Assembly (NCBI RefSeq): GCF_004217315.1
Contig: NZ_SGWR01000002.1
Location: 922,414-986,413 of the forward strand
Direction of reading: 5' to 3'
Source of the DNA: Corticibacter populi
GTDB lineage: Bacteria > Pseudomonadota > Gammaproteobacteria > Burkholderiales > Burkholderiaceae_C
DNA: 64,000 bases
Shown here: positions 42,521 to 64,000 of the stretch, piece by piece
How positions within the stretch are numbered: position 1 is the first letter of the stretch
Layout of the letters: each line of letters starts with the position of its first letter
Notes under the pieces: model-generated
Seen by the model: the letters and a program-made list of their open reading frames with translations, nothing else
Databases searched by the model: none
Told to the model about the DNA's origin: nothing
Position numbers and translations under genes: made by a program

Positions 42521-43024
42521 ATGCCCGCGCCGCCCCGTGACCTGCACGACGACGAAGCCCTGCGCTACCAGTGGGCCACGCTGGCCGCCTTGCTACGGCA
42601 GACCCGCATACTCGACGGGCTCGGCACGCTGCTGCTGGCCCTGGCGCTGCTGGCAGCCCTGGCGGGCGCGCTGGCGCCTATCTTCGCGCCACACCAGACC
42701 GCCTGGCGCCCCGGCTGGCCATGGCAGGCCGGGCTGGGGCTGAGCATGGCCGCCGCGCTGGTGCAGAAGTACCATGCGCTGCGCTGCGCGCTCGATGCCG
42801 AGTTGTTCGACTGGCTCGCCAGGCAGGCCCCCAACCCGGCAACAGCCGCCGAGCAGCTGGATACGGCCCTCGTCCAGTTGAGACTGCGGCGCGCAGACCA
42901 TCTGCCACCGCGCGACTGGCCCGAACGCCAGCGTGCCGCCCTCGCCCTGCTGCGCCGGCAAGGGCTGTGGCTGCTGCTGCAGGCGGTGACGCTGCTTGGC
43001 AGCTTCTGTTGGCTGCGACATTGA
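42521..43024 (+). CDS. Conserved hypothetical membrane protein
   Basis: 167 residues with a first membrane segment LLLALALLAALAGALAPIF and a second LGLSMAAALVQKYHAL. A charged region follows (LDAELFDWLARQAP), and a hydrophobic C-terminal helix ends it. I do not recognise the family. It follows the PAP2/DSP gene by 51 bp in the same orientation and probably belongs to the same lipid-related unit. Confidence 0.65.
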   Translation: MPAPPRDLHDDEALRYQWATLAALLRQTRILDGLGTLLLALALLAALAGALAPIFAPHQTAWRPGWPWQAGLGLSMAAALVQKYHALRCALDAELFDWLARQAPNPATAAEQLDTALVQLRLRRADHLPPRDWPERQRAALALLRRQGLWLLLQAVTLLGSFCWLRH

Positions 43025-49073: not shown

Positions 49074-49288
49074 TGTGGATAACTTTGTGGGGAAAACCGG
49101 GACTGATCGGAACTTATCCACAGGCAGGGGCATTTCCAGCCATCCATCCACATTGACGCATCCATCCCATCCCTTCTCCAACACATGGTTTAATGAATTC
49201 CAAGACATTGTTTTTCAATGAGAAAGAAAACTTATCCACAAAAAGATGGCAGGCTTACTACTATGACTACTTCTTTTCTTCCAAAAAG
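49074..49288 (-). other. Candidate replication origin (oriC-like module A) with three perfect DnaA boxes
   Basis: DnaA boxes matching TTATCCACA exactly lie at 49074-49082, 49114-49122 and 49232-49240 (the last two on the plus strand, the first inverted). A relaxed box CCATCCACA is at 49144-49152. An AT-rich tract (49182-49300) includes the conserved block TACTATGACTA. Read on the minus strand, box starts are 88, 30 and 40 bp apart. The same arrangement recurs in inverted orientation at 59053-59267. Nearby parS sites and mnmG support origin proximity. dnaA is not in the window. Confidence 0.65.
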
Positions 49289-49438
49289 AAAACAGTGGTA
49301 GTGGAGCTGTTGAAAAGATGCTTTTTGCGTCGCGGCCATGCGTTGCCCATATCGGTTGAATGAAAATCAAGGAGCGGCGCCTGCGGTGCATGTGATTGCA
49401 CGCCCGTCAGGTCACAACCCTTTTTGCAGTCGGCATTC

Positions 49439-50143
49439 ATGGCAGAACAGATACAAGCACACACAATGACGGAAATCGATTTCGACAATCTCGATGCCTA
49501 TGCACGCTACAAGCTGATGGCCAGTTTGATCGTGCCCAGGCCGATTGCACTGGTGACGACACTGGCTGCCGACGGCACGGTGAATGCGGCGCCGTTCAGC
49601 ATGTTCAATATGGTCGGGGAGGAGCCACCGCTTCTGATGATCAGCATCAACAAGCTGGCAGAGGGATCGCTCAAGGACACGGCCGCGCACATCCTCCGCA
49701 GCGGCGAATTCGTGGTGCACATCACTGATGAGCCGATGGCAGCGGCCATGCACCGTTGCGGGGATGCCTTGCCGCGCACGCACAGTGAACTCGCCCATGC
49801 GGGCCTGACCGCCATGCCATCGCAGCGCGTGCGTCCGCCGCGCATTGGCGAAGCACCGGTGGCCTTCGAGTGCGTGCTGCACGAGACGCTGGAGAGCGCG
49901 AGTCGCTATGTTTTCATTGGCCGCGTGCTGTGGCTTGGTGCACGCCAGGGGCTGGTCGATACCGGGCGTTGGCGCGTGTCACTGCAGGATTATTTTCCGG
50001 TCGGGCGCTTCGGCGCGAGTTTCTACGTCGATTGCCGCAACCGCTTTGCCATCGATGGGGCGGGCCAGCCCGTGCGGTCAGGCACAGGCCGCGGTGTGCC
50101 TGCAGGCGCGGCCGACACCAGCACGGCAATCGATGAGATCTGA
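49439..50143 (+). CDS. Flavin reductase family protein
   Basis: 234 residues of the flavin reductase-like split barrel: YARYKLMASLIVPRPIALVTTLAADGTVNAAPFSMFNMVGEEPPLLMISIN, typical of the YwrF-type family, then TAAHILRSGEFVVHI and HSELAHAGLTAMPS. It probably reduces FMN or is an FMN-binding oxidoreductase. ATG 49439 and ATG 49466 are both possible; an earlier TTG is unlikely. It is unrelated in position to the monooxygenase system at 11 kb. Function otherwise open. Confidence 0.8.
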   Translation: MAEQIQAHTMTEIDFDNLDAYARYKLMASLIVPRPIALVTTLAADGTVNAAPFSMFNMVGEEPPLLMISINKLAEGSLKDTAAHILRSGEFVVHITDEPMAAAMHRCGDALPRTHSELAHAGLTAMPSQRVRPPRIGEAPVAFECVLHETLESASRYVFIGRVLWLGARQGLVDTGRWRVSLQDYFPVGRFGASFYVDCRNRFAIDGAGQPVRSGTGRGVPAGAADTSTAIDEI

Positions 50144-50234
50144 TAGCGTTTTCAAAGCCTCGCCATGCTTGCCATGACACCTGAATGGCTCTGAAGGGCG
50201 CGCCGATGGCGCGTGGATGGAGCTCCGCCGGATT

Positions 50235-50660
50235 TCAACGGTTGGCGTCGAGGATGGCCATGGTGATGCGTGAAATGCAGACCATTTTGCCGGCGTCGTC
50301 GACGATCTCGATCTGCCAGACGTGGGTGGTGCGGCCCAGATGCACCGGTCGCGCCGTACCTGTGACCCAGCCGGAGGTGGCCGGGCGCAGGTGGTTGGCA
50401 TTGATGTCCAGCCCCACGGCATGGCAGCCCTCGGCGGCGGCATAGTAGGCTCCCATCGAACCCAGGGTCTCGGCCAGTACCACGCTGCAGCCGCCATGCA
50501 GCAGCCCGAAAGGCTGCTTGGTGCGGGTATCGACCGGCATGCGGGCGCGCAGGAAATCATCGCCGATTTCGGTCGCTTCGATGCCCAGATGGCTCACCGC
50601 CGTGTTGGCATGTGACTTGGACATGAGTTCGAGGTTGAATTCTTTTTTCCAGATGGACAT
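50235..50660 (-). CDS. Hotdog-fold acyl-CoA thioesterase, YdiI/MenI-PaaI-like
   Basis: 141 residues: MSIWKKEFNLELMSKSHANTA, then HLGIEATEIGDDFLRARMPVDTRTKQPFGLLHGGCSVVLAETLGSMGA. The latter contains the family's HGG plus catalytic Glu (AETLGS) motif. Aryl- or acyl-CoA thioesterases of the YdiI group have this length. The start follows from the motif position; the frame is open far upstream without support. It lies convergent with the flavin reductase and divergent from the aminotransferase. Confidence 0.88.
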   Translation of the reverse strand: MSIWKKEFNLELMSKSHANTAVSHLGIEATEIGDDFLRARMPVDTRTKQPFGLLHGGCSVVLAETLGSMGAYYAAAEGCHAVGLDINANHLRPATSGWVTGTARPVHLGRTTHVWQIEIVDDAGKMVCISRITMAILDANR

Positions 50661-50828
50661 GGTGTTTGCGCCGCGTTGGAGAAATGGTCGCTCGATTCTA
50701 TCGATGGGCGCAGCCGGCTGCTGTCGCCTGCGGTATGCGCCGGATGTCCCGCTTTCGCGGGCTATCACCGGGATGGCCGGACCTGGCGGCGCGGTATGCT
50801 TGACGCTTTGATTGTCAAAAGGAAACCC

Positions 50829-51965
50829 ATGCCCGGACTGCTGCCCGATGTCGATCCCGATGGCCTGCTGGAGTTCTCGGTGGTCTACACCGATCGTGCG
50901 CTCAACCACATGTCGCAACGCTTTGTTGGCGTGATGCAGGACATTCTGGCCACGCTCAAGCAGGTCTACCAGGCCCATACCGCCGTGCTGGTGCCCGGTA
51001 GCGGCACCTTCGGCATGGAGGCGGTGGCACGCCAGTTCGCCAATGGGCAGAAAGTGCTGATCGTGCGCAACGGCTGGTTCAGCTACCGCTGGTCGCAGAT
51101 CATCGGGATGGGCCAGTTCGGCCTGCCGGGCGGGGAGGTGGTCTGCCAGGCAAGCCCGCAGGGCGAGGGCGGCGAGGCGCCGTGGGCGCCGATGCCGGCG
51201 GAGCAGGTGGCCGAACGCATTCGCGCCGAGAAACCGGCGGTGGTGTTTGCCCCGCATTGCGAGACGGCCAGCGGCATACTGCTGCCCGATGCCTACATCC
51301 GAACTGTGGCCGAGGCCGCGCATGCCGTGGGCGCGCTGCTGGTGCTCGACTGCATTGCCTCGGGTGCCGTCTGGGTGGACATGCAGGCCACGGGCGTGGA
51401 TGTACTGATCAGTGCGCCGCAAAAAGGCTGGAGCAGCTCGCCCTGCTGCGCGATGGTGATGCTTTCGCAGCGTGCGCGTGAAGCCATCGATGCCACGCAA
51501 AGTTCGAGCTTTGCCTGCGACCTGAAGAAATGGATGCAGATCGCCGAAGGCTATGAGAAGGGCCAGCATGCCTACCACACCACCATGCCCACTGATGCGC
51601 TGCTGCGCCTGCGCGATGTGATGCTGGAGACGCGCGAGCTGGGTTTCGAGCACATGCGCGAGCGCCAGATCGAACTGGGCACCAAAGTCCGCGCGCTGTT
51701 GGAGCAAAAAGGCTTTGCCAGCGTGGCCGCGGCAGGTTTCCAGTCGCCGGGTGTGGTGGTGAGCTATACCACCGACCCGGATATCCAGAGTGGCCGCAAG
51801 TTCCTGCAAGTGGGCCTGCAGGCCGCCTCGGGCGTGCCGCTGATGTGCGGCGAGGGGGCCGATTTCCGCACGTTCCGGCTGGGCCTTTTCGGCCTGGAGA
51901 AATGGCTGAACGTGGACCGCACGGTCGGCCACCTGCAGCAGGCGCTCGAACGAATGGGGGTCTGA
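50829..51965 (+). CDS. Class V aminotransferase (alanine-glyoxylate/serine-pyruvate type)
   Basis: 378 residues, PLP-dependent. MPGLLPDVDPDGLLEFSVVYTDRALNHMS is an unusual N-terminus for the family. VLVPGSGTFGMEAVARQF binds the cofactor phosphate, and HCETASGILLPDAYI follows. The PLP Asp is in LLVLDCIASGAVW and the Schiff-base Lys in LISAPQKGWSSSPCCAMV. A strong AAAGGA precedes the ATG. Its TGA stop directly abuts repeat copy 4. Likely substrates are small amino acids with glyoxylate or pyruvate; not certain. Confidence 0.85.
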   Translation: MPGLLPDVDPDGLLEFSVVYTDRALNHMSQRFVGVMQDILATLKQVYQAHTAVLVPGSGTFGMEAVARQFANGQKVLIVRNGWFSYRWSQIIGMGQFGLPGGEVVCQASPQGEGGEAPWAPMPAEQVAERIRAEKPAVVFAPHCETASGILLPDAYIRTVAEAAHAVGALLVLDCIASGAVWVDMQATGVDVLISAPQKGWSSSPCCAMVMLSQRAREAIDATQSSSFACDLKKWMQIAEGYEKGQHAYHTTMPTDALLRLRDVMLETRELGFEHMRERQIELGTKVRALLEQKGFASVAAAGFQSPGVVVSYTTDPDIQSGRKFLQVGLQAASGVPLMCGEGADFRTFRLGLFGLEKWLNVDRTVGHLQQALERMGV

Positions 51966-52148
51966 GAACCTGTTCAAAGTCTCTGCATGGAGCCGCATGG
52001 CAACGCCATGCCCTGTGGGTTGCGGCTGAAATGCTGCGTCTGCGGCGTTGCAAAGCCTCGCCGGGCCACCAGCCCGGCTGCGTTTTGCGCCTTGCAGCCA
52101 CAACCTTTCAACCACAACGGCTCTCATGCCAAGACTTTGAACAGGTTC
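51966..52148. repeat. Stop-codon-flush palindromic repeat, copy 4 (183 bp)
   Basis: The left end GAACCTGTTCAAAGTCTCTG begins one base after the aminotransferase TGA. The right end CCAAGACTTTGAACAGGTTC is its inverted repeat with few mismatches. The interior differs from copies 1 and 2 but has further palindromes (GCCGGGCCACCAGCCCGGC). It lies between convergent genes. Confidence 0.75.
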
Positions 52149-52229
52149 TGAGACCAGTCTGGTCGTTGGCAGATGATGGTGTAGATGGTGGCCTGGTCCG
52201 GATCTGGGCTTGCGGTCAGGCGCTCCGCT

Positions 52230-53765
52230 TCAGGCGGCCACCGCTTCCCGGACCTTCATGCTGCCGGTGCGCTCGAAACGGGCATGCCAGGAAAGGGCCT
52301 CGTCCAGTAGCATCGGCGTGTGCTTGCCGCGTGAGTGGTGCAGCGCTCGCTCAAAATATTCCTGCAGCATGGGCCGGTACTCGGGCGCGCTGCAGTTGTC
52401 GATGATGAGGCGGGCGCGCTGCTTGGGGGCTAGGCCGCGCAGGTCGGCCAGGCCGCGTTCGGTCACCAGGATCTGCACGTCATGCTCGGTGTGGTCGACG
52501 TGCGAGACGGCCGGTACGATGCAGGAGATGTCGCCACCCCTGGCGCTGGACTTGGCCATGAAGATCGACAGGTAGGCATTGCGGGCGAAATCGCCCGAGC
52601 CGCCGATGCCGTTCATGATGGACGAGCCCATCACGTGTGTGGAGTTGACGTTGCCGTAGATGTCGGCCTCGATCATCGCGTTCATGGCGATCACGCCCAG
52701 GCGCCGGATCAGCTCCGGGTGGTTGCTCATCTCCTGCGGGCGCAACACGATCTTGTCGCGGTAGAAGTCGATGTTGTCGACGAAGTCCTGTTCGCCTTCG
52801 GGGCTGAGCGAAAAGCCCGTCGCTGAGGCGCCGACCATTTTGCCCGAGCGCAGCATGGCCAGCATGCCATCCTGCATGACCTCGGTGAAGGCCGTCAGGT
52901 TCTCGAACGGGCCATTGTTGAGCCCGGCCAGCACCGCATTGGCGATGTTGCCCACACCCGACTGCAGCGGCAGCAGGCTTTTGGGCAGCCGGCCATGGCG
53001 GACCTCGCTTTTGAAGAAGTCGATCAGGTGGCCGGCGATCTGCTCGGAGTCGGCATCGGCGGGCTTGAAGGGCGAATTGCGGTCGGCCTTGTGGGTTGGC
53101 ACGACCGCGATCACCTTGGCCGGGTCGCAGCGCAGGTAGGGCTCGCCAATGCGGTCATGCGGGTGCACCAGCGGAATCGGCACGCGGTGCGGCGGCAGCT
53201 GCGTGCCGTAGTAGACGTCGTGCATGCCGGCCAGGCCCAGCGGCTGGCGTTCGTTGACTTCTAGGATGACGAGATCCGCCTGGTCCAGCCAGGTTTTGTT
53301 GTTGCCCACCGAGGTCGATGGAATCAGCCTGCCGTCGGGCAGGATGCCGGCGACCTCGATCAAGGCCACGTTGAGCTTGCCGAAGAAGCCGAACCAGACA
53401 TACTGCGCCACATGCGAGAGGTGCATGTCGATGTAGTTGATGTCGCCCTGGTTGATGCGCTCGCGGCTGGTCGGGTCGGACTGGTAGGGCAGGCGCATGT
53501 TGATGCCATTGACCTTGGCCAGTGCGCCGTCGATCTCGGGCCCGGTGGAGGCGCCGGTCCACATGCCGATCTTGAAATGGTGGCCCTGGGCCAGTTGCGC
53601 CTCGATGCGCCTGGCCAGCGCCATGGGCACTTCCTTGGGCGCGCCCGAGCCGGTGAAGCCGCTCATGCCGACGTTGCAGCCTTCGGGAATCAGGGCCGCG
53701 GCGGCATCGGCGGACATGATCTTGCTCTTGAAGGCCGGACATTGGATGCGATCGTATTCAGGCAT
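52230..53765 (-). CDS. Succinate CoA-transferase (acetyl-CoA hydrolase/transferase family)
   Basis: 511 residues, the length of AarC/Cat1 succinyl-CoA:acetate CoA-transferases. Family marks are GMSGFTGSGAPKEVPMALARR, HKADRNSPF, and SGVGNIANAVLAGL with FTEVMQDGMLAML, whose Glu is the expected acyl-carrying residue. NSTHVMGSSIMNGIGGSGDFARNAYLSIF and LVTERGLADLRGLAP follow. It moves CoA between succinyl-CoA and acetate. It is divergent from acetoacetyl-CoA synthetase across a regulatory gap, suggesting a short-chain acid activation theme. Confidence 0.93.
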   Translation of the reverse strand: MPEYDRIQCPAFKSKIMSADAAAALIPEGCNVGMSGFTGSGAPKEVPMALARRIEAQLAQGHHFKIGMWTGASTGPEIDGALAKVNGINMRLPYQSDPTSRERINQGDINYIDMHLSHVAQYVWFGFFGKLNVALIEVAGILPDGRLIPSTSVGNNKTWLDQADLVILEVNERQPLGLAGMHDVYYGTQLPPHRVPIPLVHPHDRIGEPYLRCDPAKVIAVVPTHKADRNSPFKPADADSEQIAGHLIDFFKSEVRHGRLPKSLLPLQSGVGNIANAVLAGLNNGPFENLTAFTEVMQDGMLAMLRSGKMVGASATGFSLSPEGEQDFVDNIDFYRDKIVLRPQEMSNHPELIRRLGVIAMNAMIEADIYGNVNSTHVMGSSIMNGIGGSGDFARNAYLSIFMAKSSARGGDISCIVPAVSHVDHTEHDVQILVTERGLADLRGLAPKQRARLIIDNCSAPEYRPMLQEYFERALHHSRGKHTPMLLDEALSWHARFERTGSMKVREAVAA

Positions 53766-54148
53766 TGTCTCGTGGGTGTCAGAACCGGTTGGAACAAGCC
53801 TGTGATGCTACCCCTGACGGGTGGATCAGTCATGGTTTCTAACTAGGTATTAACCCTTGAATAATCGCTTCATCGGTCCGGCAGACCCTCAATTTTTCAT
53901 ATATCGATAATCGACCTCTGTATTTTGAAAATGCAGACCGATTATGTTGCATTGCAATAAATGCATATTGCAGTGCAATAAATACCGTGATTATGGGTCT
54001 GGATGCCTGGATTCGTGCCAGCCCTTGCAGCCAAGGCCCCGGCGGGCGGGCGCCGCCACAGAGGGGCAAGCCCGATATCGCATCGGTGACAGGCTCCCCG
54101 TGAAAACACCAAGGTGCCCGAAGGCCGCCGTGCTTACCCTCGAAGGCC
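53766..54148. other. Divergent regulatory gap between CoA-transferase and acetoacetyl-CoA synthetase
   Basis: 383 bp without a gene, AT-rich in its left half (53840-53990). It contains the phased direct repeat at 53949-53983. I see no other defined element. Confidence 0.5.
53949..53983. promoter_or_regulatory. Phased 14-bp direct repeat upstream of acetoacetyl-CoA synthetase
   Basis: GCATTGCAATAAAT and GCAGTGCAATAAAT differ by one base and start 21 bp apart, two helical turns. Each contains a TGCAnTGCA-like core. They resemble a pair of activator or repressor half-sites; the regulator is unknown. Confidence 0.5.
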
Positions 54149-56236
54149 ATGAACACACCGGCCTACATCCCGCAAATCCGCCTCTACCAGGATTGGCTGG
54201 CCCGCACGCGTGGGCTGCATTTCGATGATTACGACCAGCTCTGGCGGTGGTCCACCACCGAACTGGAGGCATTCTGGGCCAGTATCTGGGAATATTTCGA
54301 CATCCAGTCGCATACGCCATACGAGAAAGTGCTGGCAGAGAATGTGATGCCCGGCGCGCACTGGTTCACCGGCGCGCAGGTCAATTTCGCGCAGCAGGTG
54401 CTGCGGCATGTCGATGCGGCCGCGGCCGCCGGTCTGCCCGCCATCATTGCCGACAACGAGGAAGGCGTGGCCAGCACGCTGTCCTGGCCCGAGCTGCACC
54501 AGCAGGTTGCGGCGCTGGCGGTCCATCTGCAGGAGCTGGGCGTGCAGCCGGGCGATCGCGTGGCAGCCTACCTGCCCAACATCCCGCAGACCATCGTGGC
54601 GTTTCTGGCCACCGCCAGCATCGGCGCAGTCTGGAGTGTGTGCGCTCCCGACATGGGCACCCATGCCGTGTTGGATCGCTTCCGACAGATCGAACCGGTG
54701 GTGCTGATCGGGGTCGATGGCGTGTTCTATGGCGGCAAGGCCATCGACCGGCAGGACGTATGCCAGCAGATCCTCGCCGCGCTGCCCAGCGTGCGCCATG
54801 CCATCGTGGTCGGCAATCGTGACCCCGAGGTGTCATGGCCCGGCTGGCAGCGTTTTGCCGATCTGCTGCGGCGCGACAGCGCCTCCGTACAGGCCTTCGA
54901 GCCGCGCTGGCTGCCGTTCGAGCATCCGCTGTGGATCGTCTACTCCAGCGGCACCACGGGCCTGCCCAAGCCCATCGTGCATGGCCATGGCGGCATGATG
55001 CTGGTGCAGCTGCAACTGGGCACGCTGCACAACGACATCGGCTGCAGCTATGCTGCCAACAGCCTCGGCGAGCGCTACCACTGGTACAGCTCGACCGGCT
55101 GGGTGATGTGGAACGCCCAGGTCGGCGGCCTGCTGGCTGGCACCACCATCGTGATCTTCGACGGCAACCCCGCCGGCGCGCGCGACAGGCCCGACATGAG
55201 CACGCTGTGGCGCTTTGCCGCGCGCCACCGCGTCACCTTCTTCGGTGTGGGCGCGGCTTTCTACGCCTTGTGCGCCAAGGCGGATATCGATCCGGCCCAG
55301 TGCGGCGACCTGCGCCGCATCCGCGTGCTGGGCAGCACCGGCTCCCCACTGAGCGAGGACGTACAGAACTGGGGCACGGCGTTCATGCGCCGCGCCGGCG
55401 TGGCTGGCAAAGACGGGCAGGGCATCTGGTGGAGCAACATCTCGGGCGGAACGGATTTCGCCGGCGCCTTTCTCGGTGGCAACCGCGAGCTGCCACAGAC
55501 GCCCGGACGCATGCAATGCCGCATGCTGGGCGCGGCCGTGCAGGCCTGGGACGAAACCGGCCAGGCGGTGGCAGACCAGGTGGGTGAGCTGGTCTGCACC
55601 CAACCGATCCCCTCGATGCCGCTGTACCTGTGGGGCGATGCCGATGGCAGCCGCTACCGCAGCAGCTATTTCGACACCTACGCGCCCGGCCACGGGCGCC
55701 ATCCGCACGGCGGCGATCTGCCGCCCTCAGCCGGCGCGGTGTGGCGGCATGGCGATTGGCTGAGCATCGGTGGCGATGGCAGCTGCGTGATCTATGGCCG
55801 CTCGGATGCCACCATCAACCGCCACGGCCTGCGCATGGGCACCAGCGAGGTCTACAGCGCCGTCGAGGCCCTGCCCGAAGTGCTCGATGCGCTGGTGGTC
55901 GATCTGGAGTACCTGGGGCGCGCGAGCCATATGCCGCTCTTCGTGGTGCTGCGCGAAGGCGTGGTGCTCGACGCCGCGCTGCGCCAGCGCATCGACGATG
56001 CGATCCGAGTGGCGCTTTCGCCGCGCTTCGTGCCCGATGCCATCGTGCAGGTTGCGCAGGTGCCGCGCACGCTGAGCGGCAAGAAGCAGGAACTGCCGAT
56101 CAAGAAGCTGTTGCTGGGCCAGCCGGTCGAGAAAATCATCAACCGCGACACCATGGCCAACCCCGACTGCCTGGATTGGTACGTGGACTTTGCGCAGCGG
56201 CACCTGAGCAACGTACCGGCCGCATCGCAGGCCTGA
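54149..56236 (+). CDS. Acetoacetate-CoA ligase
   Basis: 695 residues, a long adenylate-forming ligase of the acetoacetyl-CoA synthetase group (family length about 650-700). The N-terminal WSTTELEAFWASIWEYFDI is group-typical. The AMP-binding P-loop is WIVYSSGTTGLPKPIVHGHGG. Later come HWYSSTGWVMWNAQVGGLLAG, GRSDATINRHGLRMGTSEVYSAVEALPEVLDALVV, and the catalytic Lys region TLSGKKQELPIKKLL. It activates acetoacetate for ketone-body use or PHB turnover. Confidence 0.93.
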   Translation: MNTPAYIPQIRLYQDWLARTRGLHFDDYDQLWRWSTTELEAFWASIWEYFDIQSHTPYEKVLAENVMPGAHWFTGAQVNFAQQVLRHVDAAAAAGLPAIIADNEEGVASTLSWPELHQQVAALAVHLQELGVQPGDRVAAYLPNIPQTIVAFLATASIGAVWSVCAPDMGTHAVLDRFRQIEPVVLIGVDGVFYGGKAIDRQDVCQQILAALPSVRHAIVVGNRDPEVSWPGWQRFADLLRRDSASVQAFEPRWLPFEHPLWIVYSSGTTGLPKPIVHGHGGMMLVQLQLGTLHNDIGCSYAANSLGERYHWYSSTGWVMWNAQVGGLLAGTTIVIFDGNPAGARDRPDMSTLWRFAARHRVTFFGVGAAFYALCAKADIDPAQCGDLRRIRVLGSTGSPLSEDVQNWGTAFMRRAGVAGKDGQGIWWSNISGGTDFAGAFLGGNRELPQTPGRMQCRMLGAAVQAWDETGQAVADQVGELVCTQPIPSMPLYLWGDADGSRYRSSYFDTYAPGHGRHPHGGDLPPSAGAVWRHGDWLSIGGDGSCVIYGRSDATINRHGLRMGTSEVYSAVEALPEVLDALVVDLEYLGRASHMPLFVVLREGVVLDAALRQRIDDAIRVALSPRFVPDAIVQVAQVPRTLSGKKQELPIKKLLLGQPVEKIINRDTMANPDCLDWYVDFAQRHLSNVPAASQA

Positions 56237-56283
56237 GAACCCGTGACAAGGGCCCGCTCGCGCCACATCAATGCATCATTGAA

Positions 56284-56826
56284 TCACTGCACGGGCCGGT
56301 AGTAGCGCCTGCCGTTGAAGTCGCGGTATTCGTACTGCTGCGCCTGCACGGGCGCCGGCTGGGCCTGGTAGTAGGGCTGCGCAACAGGTGCCTGGTAGGT
56401 CTGCACCGGTTGGCTGTAGACCGGTTGCGACTGCACATAGGCCGCAGGCGGATAGGCTCCATTGTCGTAATAGCCGCCCTGATAGGACCCTTGGTAGGCC
56501 GGTGCGGGTGGCGCGTAGGCACTCGCCTGCGGCTGGCTGGGCGCGGCCGATTGCGACAGCGCATAACCCAGAATGCCACCGATCAGCAATGCCCCGATCG
56601 CCACGTCGGCATGGTTGCTGCGGCGGGATTCGTAGCGCTGGCGCGGTGGCTGGTAGGGGCGGCCCGGGCCGCCATACTGGTGGCTGTGACCGTTGCTGTA
56701 GCCACTGCCATAGCCAGGGTGGTAACCGCGGTCGTACCGCTGGCCGTAGCCTTGCTGGGCCATGGCCGAGCCGGCCGCCAGCAGGGCTGCCAAAGCCAGT
56801 GCGATGCCGGTGAGTTGTCTGGGCAT
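56284..56826 (-). CDS. Gly/Tyr/Gln-rich exported protein of unknown function
   Basis: 180 residues. The signal peptide MPRQLTGIALALAALLAAGSAMA is cleaved at AMA-QQ. A Gly/Tyr-rich stretch (QRYDRGYHPGYGSGYSNGH) follows, then a hydrophobic Gly-zipper-like segment VAIGALLIGGILGYALSQ. A Pro/Gln/Tyr-rich low-complexity region and a conserved-looking tail EYRDFNGRRYYRPVQ complete it. I do not recognise the family; it is probably periplasmic or envelope-associated. ATG 56826 opens the signal peptide. Confidence 0.6.
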   Translation of the reverse strand: MPRQLTGIALALAALLAAGSAMAQQGYGQRYDRGYHPGYGSGYSNGHSHQYGGPGRPYQPPRQRYESRRSNHADVAIGALLIGGILGYALSQSAAPSQPQASAYAPPAPAYQGSYQGGYYDNGAYPPAAYVQSQPVYSQPVQTYQAPVAQPYYQAQPAPVQAQQYEYRDFNGRRYYRPVQ

Positions 56827-56992
56827 ATCGAAAATCCTTTCAACCGGATGAGCAGTATCCATGCAGCCATCAACGCGGCTGCGAGCACATCAGCTTACAC
56901 AGCGCATGTAAAGCTGCAATAACGACAGGTTTCGCTGTCGAGAACAGGTATTGAGGGTGGCAGGATCGCCTTGGCGCGGATAATCGCGCTCC

Positions 56993-58879
<1,887 letters not shown>

Positions 58880-58902
58880 AGTCGGCCCAGCGCTGGAAAA
58901 AG

Positions 58903-58930
58903 AAAAAGCCACTGTCATAGTGGCTTTTTT
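58903..58930 (+). terminator. Rho-independent terminator of uup
   Basis: AAAAAGCCACT-GTCAT-AGTGGCTTTTT is an 11-bp perfect stem with a U-tract, 24 bp after the uup stop. Confidence 0.9.
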
Positions 58931-59052
58931 ATGGCTCGTACACGGTCATTCCACCTGCAGGGTGAGACCGTGCACGGACAGGATCGCTCTTCACACAAGG
59001 CGAAAACGGTAAGAAAAGCGCGATGCCAATGTTCTCACCATGACTATGAAGA

Positions 59053-59267
59053 CTTTTTAAAAAAAGGAAATAGTCATAGTAATAGGCCTGCTGCCGTTCT
59101 GTTGACAAGTGCTCTTTTCCTTTTCAGAACAGCTGGTTGCAGACCTGGAAAGCATGTGTTGCAACGGCGGTAAACAGCAGGTCCGATTGTGGATGGATCA
59201 CCTCTCGGGCTCCAATCTGTGGACAAGTGGTCTTTTATTCCCGGCGCTGCCCAAAGACTTGTCCACA
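59053..59267 (+). other. oriC-like module B, inverted and diverged copy of module A
   Basis: 215 bp, exactly the length of module A. DnaA-box positions are TGTTGACAA (59100), TGTGGATGG (59188), TGTGGACAA (59218) and TTGTCCACA (59259, inverted). Their starts are 88, 30 and 41 bp apart, against 88, 30 and 40 in module A. Shared blocks include TAGTCATAGTA, CATGTGTTG, GTGGATGGAT, TTCCCGG/GTCCCGG and CAAAG before the last box. An AT-rich run (TTTTTAAAAAAAGGAAATAG) sits at the left end. The boxes are the TTGTCCACA variant rather than TTATCCACA, so function may be weaker. Confidence 0.6.
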
Positions 59268-61951: not shown

Positions 61952-61967
61952 TGTTCCACGTGAAACA
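61952..61967. promoter_or_regulatory. parS site (ParB-binding), intergenic, TGTTCCACGTGAAACA
   Basis: An exact match to the 16-bp bacterial chromosome parS consensus, in the gap between the PepSY gene and mnmG. ParB loads here to organise and segregate the origin region. Confidence 0.92.
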
Positions 61968-62113
61968 GGCCTGTCCGTATGGGTTTCCTTCCTGACGGCA
62001 TGGCGGGCAGGGCGCTTGTCGGAGTGAACCGGTAAAATCGCCGGTTTGATATGCCCGGCGCAAGACCCTGTTCTTCTTCTTTCGGTCTTGCCGCCTGATG
62101 AGGCCCACGCACC

Positions 62114-64000
62114 ATGTCCGATCTCACTCCCTACACCTACCCGCAGGAATTCGACGTCATCGTCGTCGGTGGCGGCCATGCCGGCACCGAGGCAGCGCTG
62201 GCGGCTGCCCGCATGGGCTGCCGCACGCTGCTGCTGACGCACAACATCGAGACGCTGGGGCAGATGAGCTGCAATCCTTCGATCGGTGGTATCGGCAAGG
62301 GGCATCTGGTGCGCGAGGTCGATGCGCTCGGCGGCGCCATGGCGCTGGCTACCGACGAGGGCGGCATCCAGTTCCGCACGCTCAACAGCAGCAAGGGACC
62401 GGCGGTGCGTGCCACGCGTGCGCAAGCCGACCGCATTCTCTACAAGGCGGCCATCCGCCGCATGCTCGAAAACCAGCCGAACCTGTGGTTGTTCCAGCAG
62501 GCCGTCGAGGACCTGATGCTCGATGGCGAACGGGTGGTGGGCGCCGTCACGCAGGTGGGCATTCGCTTCCGTTCGCGCACTGTGGTGCTGACGGCCGGCA
62601 CCTTTCTCGATGGCCGCATCCACGTGGGCCTGAACAACTACCAGGCCGGCCGGGCCGGCGATCCGCCGGCGGTGTCGCTGTCGGCGCGCCTGAAGGAGCT
62701 GAAGCTCCCGCAGGGGCGGCTCAAGACCGGCACGCCGCCGCGCCTCGATGGCCGCAGCATCGACTTTTCCAAGTGCATCGAGCAGCCCGGTGATGGCGTG
62801 CCCGGCGGCGAGCGGCCCGGACACATGCCGGTGTTCAGCTTCATGGGCAACCGGACCATGCACCCGCGCCAGATTTCCTGCTGGATCACGCACACCAATG
62901 CGCGAACGCACGAGATCATCCGCAGCGGTTTCGACCGCAGCCCGATGTTCACCGGCCGCATCGAAGGGGTGGGGCCACGCTACTGCCCGAGCGTCGAGGA
63001 CAAGATCAACCGCTTTGCCGACAAGGACAGCCACCAGATCTTTCTCGAACCCGAAGGCCTGACGACGCACGAGGTCTATCCCAACGGCATTTCCACCAGC
63101 CTGCCGTTCGACATTCAGTACGAACTGGTGCGGTCGATGCCGGGGCTGGAGAATGCCCATATCCTGCGGCCCGGTTATGCGATCGAGTACGACTATTTCG
63201 ATCCGCGCGGTCTCAAGAACAGCTTCGAGACACGCCAGATCCAGGGCCTGTTCTTCGCCGGCCAGATCAACGGAACCACCGGCTATGAGGAAGCGGCTGC
63301 GCAAGGTCTGTTCGCGGGGCTGAATGCCGCGCTGCAGTGCCAGGGCAAGGAACCCTGGCTGCCCCGCCGCGACGAGGCCTACCTGGGCGTGCTGGTCGAT
63401 GACCTGATCACCAAGGGTGTGACCGAGCCTTACCGCATGTTCACCAGCCGCGCCGAGTACCGGCTGCAGCTGCGCGAGGACAACGCCGACCTGCGCCTGA
63501 CCGAGGCCGGCCGCCGGCTGGGCCTGGTGGACGACGCACGCTGGGATGCGTTCTGCCGCAAGCGCGATGCCATCGAACGCGAGACAGCACGGCTGAAGGC
63601 CACCTGGGTCAGCCCGCGCAACCTGCCGCAGAGTGAGGCCGAGCGCGTGCTGGGCAAGGCCATCGAGCATGAGTACAGCCTGTTCGACCTGCTGCGCCGC
63701 CCCGGCATCGGCTATGCAGATCTGATGGGTCTGCAGGCCGAGGCCTCCGCAGCGCCGATTGCCGCCCCTGATGTTTCACGTGAAACATTGGGAGACCTGT
63801 ACGAGCCGGTGGCCGAGCAGGTCGAGATTGCCGCCAAGTACAGTGGCTACATCGACCGGCAGAAGGACGAGGTCGAGCGCGCGCAGCACTTCGAAAACCT
63901 GCTGTTGCCCGAGGACCTGGACTACGGCCAGGTTACCGCGCTGTCCTTCGAGGTGCGGCAGAAGCTCGCCCAGCATCGTCCGCAGACGTTGGGGCAGGCC
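62114..64000 (+). CDS. mnmG: tRNA uridine-5-carboxymethylaminomethyl synthesis enzyme MnmG (C-terminus beyond window edge)
   Basis: 629 residues are visible, nearly the full family length. The FAD-binding motif is [22 protein letters not shown]. Also seen are the GidA signatures [40 protein letters not shown], the [12 protein letters not shown] block, and [19 protein letters not shown]. With MnmE it installs cmnm5U at the wobble position of several tRNAs. The ATG at 62114 gives [14 protein letters not shown] parS site lies within the coding sequence, encoding DVSRET. mnmG next to parS and usually rsmG-parAB marks the origin region of many proteobacteria. Confidence 0.97.
63772..63787. promoter_or_regulatory. 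parS site inside mnmG, TGTTTCACGTGAAACA
   Basis: A perfect palindrome and a parS-consensus variant, located in frame within mnmG. It is about 1.8 kb from the first parS, as expected for a parS cluster near oriC. Confidence 0.9.

What the first reader, a model, noticed from the sequence alone, without database searches (positions are those of the whole stretch)
49074..59267. Two 215-bp oriC-like modules in opposite orientation, about 10 kb apart
Read on the minus strand, 49074-49288 aligns colinearly with 59053-59267 on the plus strand. Both are exactly 215 bp. The four DnaA-box positions are 88, 30 and 40 bp apart in one and 88, 30 and 41 bp in the other, with the last box inverted in each. 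Shared blocks outside the boxes include TAGTCATAGTA, CATGTGTTG and GTGGATGGAT. One copy has TTATCCACA boxes, the other TTGTCCACA. This looks like a duplicated or bipartite chromosomal origin, or an origin split by inversion of the segment between them.
Basis: partly seen in the sequence, partly recalled or inferred. Interest (0 to 1): 0.85.

Follow-up and report, generated by a model that had tools for sequence, protein, structure and literature searches.

The report
Two complete replication origins, one chromosome
A bacterium related to Lampropedia carries two complete copies of its predicted DNA-replication start site 10 kb apart and far from the usual place, and related bacteria often carry such copies too, although a bacterial chromosome is normally thought to need only one.

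Summary
In detail: two inverted 215-bp modules align at score 180; 1000 shuffles reach at most 96. A sequence model of 43 such modules, these two included, finds only these two in the genome at E<=0.01 and hits annotated E. coli oriC, not used to build it, at E=5.5e-8. The GC-skew turn lies at 43-49 kb, at module A, 630 kb from dnaA; mnmG and parS-like sites adjoin. This is very likely the chromosomal origin, duplicated rather than split.

It is not one genome's oddity: of 160 family genomes 100 have one module, 47 two, 9 three, 4 none. Of 100 with module and dnaA places listed, multi-module genomes have them away from dnaA in 46 of 49; single ones lie within 3 kb in 32 of 51. In Lampropedia aestuarii the B copies are intact, A is decayed, and the skew turns next to B.

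Likely mechanism: one leading origin plus a retained second module. No replication data were seen; whether B ever fires is untested.

The parts
49074..49288 (-). Module A, complete oriC; the leading origin in this genome
   Evidence: 97.6 bits, E=1.9e-29 in the window (A and B are among the 43 rows of the model); one of only two matches in the genome at E<=0.01; skew turn
49253..49300 (-). AT-rich region with DnaA-trio-like TAGTCATAGTAGTA (49256-49269), 15 bp from R1
   Evidence: 48-bp AT content reached by 0.16% of window positions; trio and gap read
49232..49240 (-). R1-like DnaA box TGTGGATAA
49201..49213 (-). IHF-like site, 1 mismatch to WATCARNNNNTTR (consensus recalled)
   Evidence: 22 of 47 modules have at most 1 mismatch there, 1.3 expected from shuffles
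49144..49152 (-). inner box TGTGGATGG (TGGGGATAA, TGGGGACAA or similar in many relatives)
49114..49122 (-). inner DnaA box TGTGGATAA
49074..49082 (-). R4-like DnaA box TTATCCACA, inverted to R1
49289..59052 (.). spacer: flavin-reductase-like, class V aminotransferase, acetyl-CoA hydrolase/transferase, AMP-binding synthetase and ABC-F-like proteins; GC skew +0.04, sign of the right arm
59053..59267 (+). Module B, second complete but diverged oriC
   Evidence: 80.8 bits, E=2.9e-24 in the window; keeps 47 of 58 family-conserved columns, A keeps 50
59071..59085 (+). DnaA-trio-like TAGTCATAGTAATAG, 14 bp before the degenerate R1, in an AT-rich stretch
59100..59108 (+). degenerate R1 TGTTGACAA
59188..59196 (+). 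inner box TGTGGATGG
59218..59226 (+). inner box TGTGGACAA
59259..59267 (+). R4-like box TTGTCCACA
61952..61967 (.). parS-like site, 1 mismatch (consensus recalled)
62111..64000 (+). mnmG (gidA), runs off the window
   Evidence: Pfam GIDA E=1.1e-168; tblastn
63772..63787 (.). parS-like site, no mismatch

Best explanation
The window holds the real chromosomal origin of this Comamonadaceae bacterium, 630 kb from dnaA and present as two complete E. coli-type oriC modules. Shown by sequence: the anatomy of both modules, the skew turn at A, and two or three such modules in a third of the sampled family genomes. Inferred: DnaA binds R1 and R4, IHF bends the DNA between them, DnaA spreads from R1 onto the trio and melts the AT-rich end, and the helicase is loaded there. 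Replication starts mostly at A; its rightward fork copies the spacer and B passively. B is kept as a weaker second start site (or as a DnaA-binding partner of A); in L. aestuarii the B copies seem to lead and A has decayed. The whole 10-kb stretch, next to parS-like sites, works as one origin zone with redundant modules. (The confidence is for the core: duplicated oriC with A leading. The rivals on B's role overlap with it.)
For: The family model finds only A and B in the genome at E<=0.01 (both were used to build it). It finds E. coli oriC at its annotated place, E=5.5e-8 in 23 kb, and nothing at E<=10 in 20 kb around this genome's dnaA. Skew is negative in 17 of 18 samples of 20 kb over C2:1-922 kb, some near zero, and positive from A to about C2:1026 kb. 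mnmG and two parS-like sites lie 2.7-4.5 kb right of B. Survey: 56 of 160 genomes have 2-3 modules; of genera with two or more sampled genomes, 16 are all multi, 25 all single, 3 mixed, so pairs are retained. A and B agree in 49 of 58 conserved columns but 40 of 86 variable ones, p=4e-6: constraint since they parted. L. aestuarii: B copies E=3.6e-30 and 4.1e-28, A E=1.3e-7 without a trio, skew turn next to B.
Against: No replication data. B has a broken R1 and TTGTCCACA boxes, and the spacer skew (+0.040, standard error 0.012) says that forks from A, not B, cross it: B may fire rarely or never. The IHF-like match in B has 2 mismatches. The cumulative skew has its minimum at 42,956 and nearly the same value at 49,300 (-778, -772; -731 between), so the turn is not resolved to A alone. 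Skew samples at C2:820-922 kb are about zero. The E. coli match starts at model position 26, so it does not cover the trio. Sister placement of A and B may mean a recent duplication, leaving less time for selection to show.
Confidence: 0.82

Rival explanations
1. A alone is the origin; B is a decaying relic of a former origin copy with no present function.
For: Degenerate R1 and boxes in B; skew puts the turn at A. In L. aestuarii the other copy decayed, so copies do decay.
Against: B keeps 47 of 58 conserved columns, whereas the decayed copy of L. aestuarii keeps 36; B matches the model over its full length; 16 of 19 genera with a multi-module genome and two or more sampled genomes are multi throughout.
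Confidence: 0.3
2. B is a DnaA-titrating or DnaA-recharging locus like datA or DARS, not a start site.
For: Weaker boxes, close to the origin.
Against: B keeps the AT-rich stretch and trio, which such loci do not need (recalled); it is a full-length match to an oriC model.
Confidence: 0.15
3. Both modules fire in the same cells, giving a true two-origin chromosome with forks meeting in the spacer.
For: Both complete; pairs kept across the family.
Against: Spacer skew is that of a region copied from one side: positive in 14 of 16 spacers of 15 direct-pair genomes when modules are read forward, and +0.04 here.
Confidence: 0.12
4. The true origin is at dnaA and the modules are regulatory.
For: In 32 of 51 single-module genomes the module is within 3 kb of dnaA.
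Against: Here no module is found at dnaA; one TTATCCACA in 20 kb there, and skew is negative on both sides (-0.049 before, -0.016 after).
Confidence: 0.03

Closest known systems
Escherichia coli oriC
   Same: Order of R1, IHF site, inner boxes and inverted R4 (box names recalled); recognised by the family model; also next to mnmG
   Different: E. coli has one copy; here two. The match to E. coli does not include the TAGTAGTA-like trio block
Cupriavidus metallidurans CHR1 origin (PMC2864759, passages read)
   Same: Skew transition about 90 kb from dnaA, preceded by 213 nt with 3 perfect DnaA boxes
   Different: No second copy of that cluster is described in the passages; a further group of four one-mismatch boxes in 65 nt is, about 130 kb away
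Bipartite origins of B. subtilis and H. pylori (described in PMC4403523; own papers seen as listings)
   Same: Two DnaA-box regions in one origin
   Different: There the parts are split by dnaA and are not two full copies (partly recalled); here each module is complete and the spacer is 9.8 kb
Putative double origins, Gao 2015 (PMC4403523, text read in full), e.g. Ralstonia pickettii 12D
   Same: Two candidate oriCs on one chromosome, one away from dnaA
   Different: Those lie 150-882 kb apart or come with duplicated dnaA; the text gives a few representative species and no alignment of the two as copies of one module

Membership tests
E. coli-type oriC | cluster of DnaA boxes in fixed spacing | tested here: met
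   Both modules: 88/30/40-41 bp steps; E. coli oriC matched by the same model
E. coli-type oriC | AT-rich unwinding element next to R1 | tested here: met
   48-bp AT content reached by 0.16% (A) and 0.03% (B) of window positions
E. coli-type oriC | IHF site between R1 and inner boxes | tested here: inconclusive
   A 1 mismatch, B 2 mismatches; family 22 of 47 with at most 1
E. coli-type oriC | GC-skew turn at the module | tested here: met
   A: turn between 43 and 49.3 kb. B: not at the turn in this genome
E. coli-type oriC | autonomous replication | not testable with these tools
   needs a plasmid test
BUS origin (DnaA-trio), module A | at least three 3'-NAN-5' trios within 16 bp of a DnaA box (criterion of PMC8287927) | tested here: met
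   TAG TAG TAA, 14 bp from R1 TGTGGATAA
BUS origin (DnaA-trio), module B | same criterion | tested here: inconclusive
   TAG TAA TAG, 14 bp from TGTTGACAA, which is two mismatches off a DnaA box
Bipartite origin (B. subtilis, H. pylori type) | two complementary box clusters split by dnaA | tested here: not met
   dnaA is at C2:340 kb, the spacer proteins are others; each module complete
datA / DARS | DnaA boxes and IHF site without an unwinding element (recalled) | tested here: not met
   both modules keep the AT-rich stretch and trio

The most novel reading that the evidence does not exclude
A third of the sampled genomes of one bacterial family naturally keep two or three complete oriC copies, mostly close together; the role of leading origin passes between them over evolution (A here, B in L. 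aestuarii), and doubling goes with freeing the origin from the dnaA neighbourhood. Both copies are usable start sites, so the one-oriC rule does not hold for these chromosomes.
Probability: 0.4. Interest if true: 0.9.

Novelty: new variant of a known kind. Interest (0 to 1): 0.78.

Why it matters
One oriC per bacterial chromosome is the working rule, and natural exceptions rest on scattered predictions (PMC4403523). Here complete copies of one well-defined module recur in 39 of 115 sampled genera and keep the multiple state in 16 of 19 such genera sampled twice or more. This gives many natural cases in which to test whether two origins can share a chromosome, how initiation stays once per cycle, how origins move, and what a second copy is for. 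It also warns that setting base 1 at dnaA misplaces the origin in many of these genomes.

Tried and rejected
DNA search with either module alone found the two copies and, with A, same-genus kin, but was too weak beyond; the R1-R4 gap pattern (22 of 399 genomes) and then the sequence-only model solved this. Considered and dropped: chance similarity; a split origin (both complete); a mobile repeat (no ORF list entry fits one in the modules; neighbours of the A copy are shared by L. aestuarii and L. puyangensis). That the better-scoring module always sits at the skew turn: not so, in G408, G244 and G313 the lower-scoring 5' module does. That one copy stays at dnaA while the other moves: seen in none of the 49 multi-module genomes, but 9 of them had a match not listed there (two of the nine are known to lie away). 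A mirrored trio arm before the AT-rich stretch: p below 0.05 in 5 of 13 genus modules, uncorrected.

Limits: one search used stricter filters and its list of places was cut, so counts are lower bounds and one search covers the stronger matches. 11 of its 160 genomes gave rows to the model; of the other 149, 145 match. Modules on another contig than dnaA were counted as away (6 of 19 single, 16 of 46 multi with no listed module on the dnaA contig). Fisher tests (genomes p=1e-9; one genome per genus p=9e-8) are not corrected for deeper kinship. The paper library is open-access only.

Full report
Observation. The two modules are real and as described. Their local alignment scores 180 against a maximum of 96 for 1000 shuffles of A, and 165 against 86 with the five exact boxes masked. 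No other place in the 64-kb window matches the family model at E<=10, and none other in the whole genome at E<=0.01. A and B were themselves among the 43 rows of that model.

Where it lies. The window is C2:922414-986413 of a 4.2-Mb genome in 9 contigs. dnaA is at C2:340 kb, with dnaN, gyrB and yidC beside it (Pfam), 630 kb away, with one TTATCCACA in that 20-kb stretch and no module at E<=10. GC skew is negative in 17 of 18 samples of 20 kb between C2:1 and C2:922 kb (+0.008 at 820 kb; four others within 0.013 of zero), and turns positive in the 8-kb block that begins at 48 kb of the window; the last 16 kb of the contig are about zero. The finer curve has its minimum at 42,956, is nearly as low at 49,300, and rises from A on; block means are -0.026 left, +0.040 spacer, +0.049 right, standard errors about 0.01. 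mnmG and two parS-like sites lie 2.7-4.5 kb to the right of B. The genus (GTDB) is that of Lampropedia aestuarii, L. puyangensis and Vandammella: lengths of contigs G006:C75, G002:C11 and G007:C13 equal those of named records. Lampropedia is in Comamonadaceae.

Anatomy. In the modules' own direction: AT-rich stretch, trio block (TAGTAGTA-like), short gap, R1 (TGTGGATAA), IHF-like site, a conserved AAnCnTGTG, inner boxes, and an inverted R4 (TTATCCACA). The sequence-only model finds annotated E. coli oriC at 26.7 bits, E=5.5e-8 in 23 kb, although E. coli was not used to build it; the match runs from model position 26 to 206, so it leaves out the trio. This is the main ground for calling the module an oriC.

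Relatives. In L. aestuarii the same two places are occupied relative to acetyl-CoA hydrolase, AACS, ABC-F and GST genes, on one contig, with A and B in opposite orientation; in L. puyangensis they lie on two contigs, and the same orientation follows from the neighbouring genes. B is doubled in both. The immediate neighbours of A differ between the window and these two species, so orthology of place A is likely, not proven. All 10 genomes of the genus have at least one match at E<=0.01: counts 2, 3, 1, 2, 1, 4, 2, 1, 2, 1; one of the four is a weak partial match, G008's only match is partial, and G004 and G008 are under 90% complete.

Family survey. Of 160 genomes (completeness 95% or more), 4 have no match at E<=0.001, 100 one, 47 two, 9 three. 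By genus: 39 of 115 with a multi-module genome, 73 single only, 3 none. For 100 genomes with a listed module and a dnaA position: one module, 32 within 3 kb of dnaA and 19 away; two or more, 3 within and 46 away. Modules on another contig count as away; 9 multi-module genomes have a match that was not listed. In one genome looked at (G095) the two modules lie in the gap between the dnaA ORF and the next ORF downstream. Steps between modules on one contig run from 0.27 to 46 kb, leaving out one pair that spans the record's start; in 35 of 40 such genomes the listed modules point the same way, in 5 they do not, this one among them.

Which copy leads. In 15 direct-pair genomes, read so that modules point forward, the spacer skew is positive in 13 (in G019 by only 1.6 standard errors), zero then positive in one with three modules (G013) and negative in one (G259). 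The left flank is negative in 12 (G389 and G012 within one standard error of zero), about zero in 2 and positive in one of 2.3 kb (G262). So the 5' module tends to sit at the turn; the stretches are 1-20 kb, and single cases are weak. Wider samples show the sign change around the modules in G179, G389 and G408, weakly in G152, and not in G313. In G389 the sample between dnaA and the modules keeps the left sign, so dnaA is not at the turn. In the window the turn is at A. In L. aestuarii, in its own contig direction, skew is -0.058 before B, +0.016 in the spacer, +0.052 beyond A, with the cumulative curve flat from 77 to 85 kb, just inside B at 74.9-76.3 kb. In both species the copy at the turn is the intact one.

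History. The tree (47 modules, 233 columns, bootstrap not fully settled) makes window A and B sisters (96/95), while in genus g19 the two copies form two clades across species (100/99 each). So copies can be old, or be renewed by duplication or conversion within a lineage.

What is not shown. No experiment; no read depth; no proof that B starts replication. Of papers I read the text of PMC4403523 in full, passages and the first part of the results of PMC8287927, passages of PMC10225481 and PMC2864759; others only as listings. Ten searches of an open-access library listed no title or abstract start that reports paired complete oriC modules in Comamonadaceae; several found more papers than they listed, subscription journals are mostly missing, and the DoriC entries themselves were not searched.

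Noticed in passing
L078:1601-1713 (Lampropedia aestuarii, upstream of mnmG): Four DnaA boxes in tandem at 17-bp steps (one TTGTCCACA, three TTATCCACA) and a fifth inverted, upstream of mnmG; perhaps an iteron-like or DnaA-controlled array.
   Followed up: no
window:59020-59099 and L082:10432-10511: In some Lampropedia-group modules the trio block has a mirrored copy on the other side of the AT-rich stretch (8 bp in B, 11 bp in L082), as if trios lay on both strands.
   Followed up: partly
G191:C1:2591202-2591677: Two modules 276 bp apart in opposite orientation beside dnaA, a rare inverted pair at the common place of single modules.
   Followed up: no
G126, G142, G150, G190: Four family genomes of 97-100% completeness without a module match at E<=0.001; origin unknown.
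   Followed up: no
L090:8846 (G008:C55): TTATCCACA followed by near-copies (TTGTGCGCA, TTGTACACG); possible further DnaA-box cluster.
   Followed up: no
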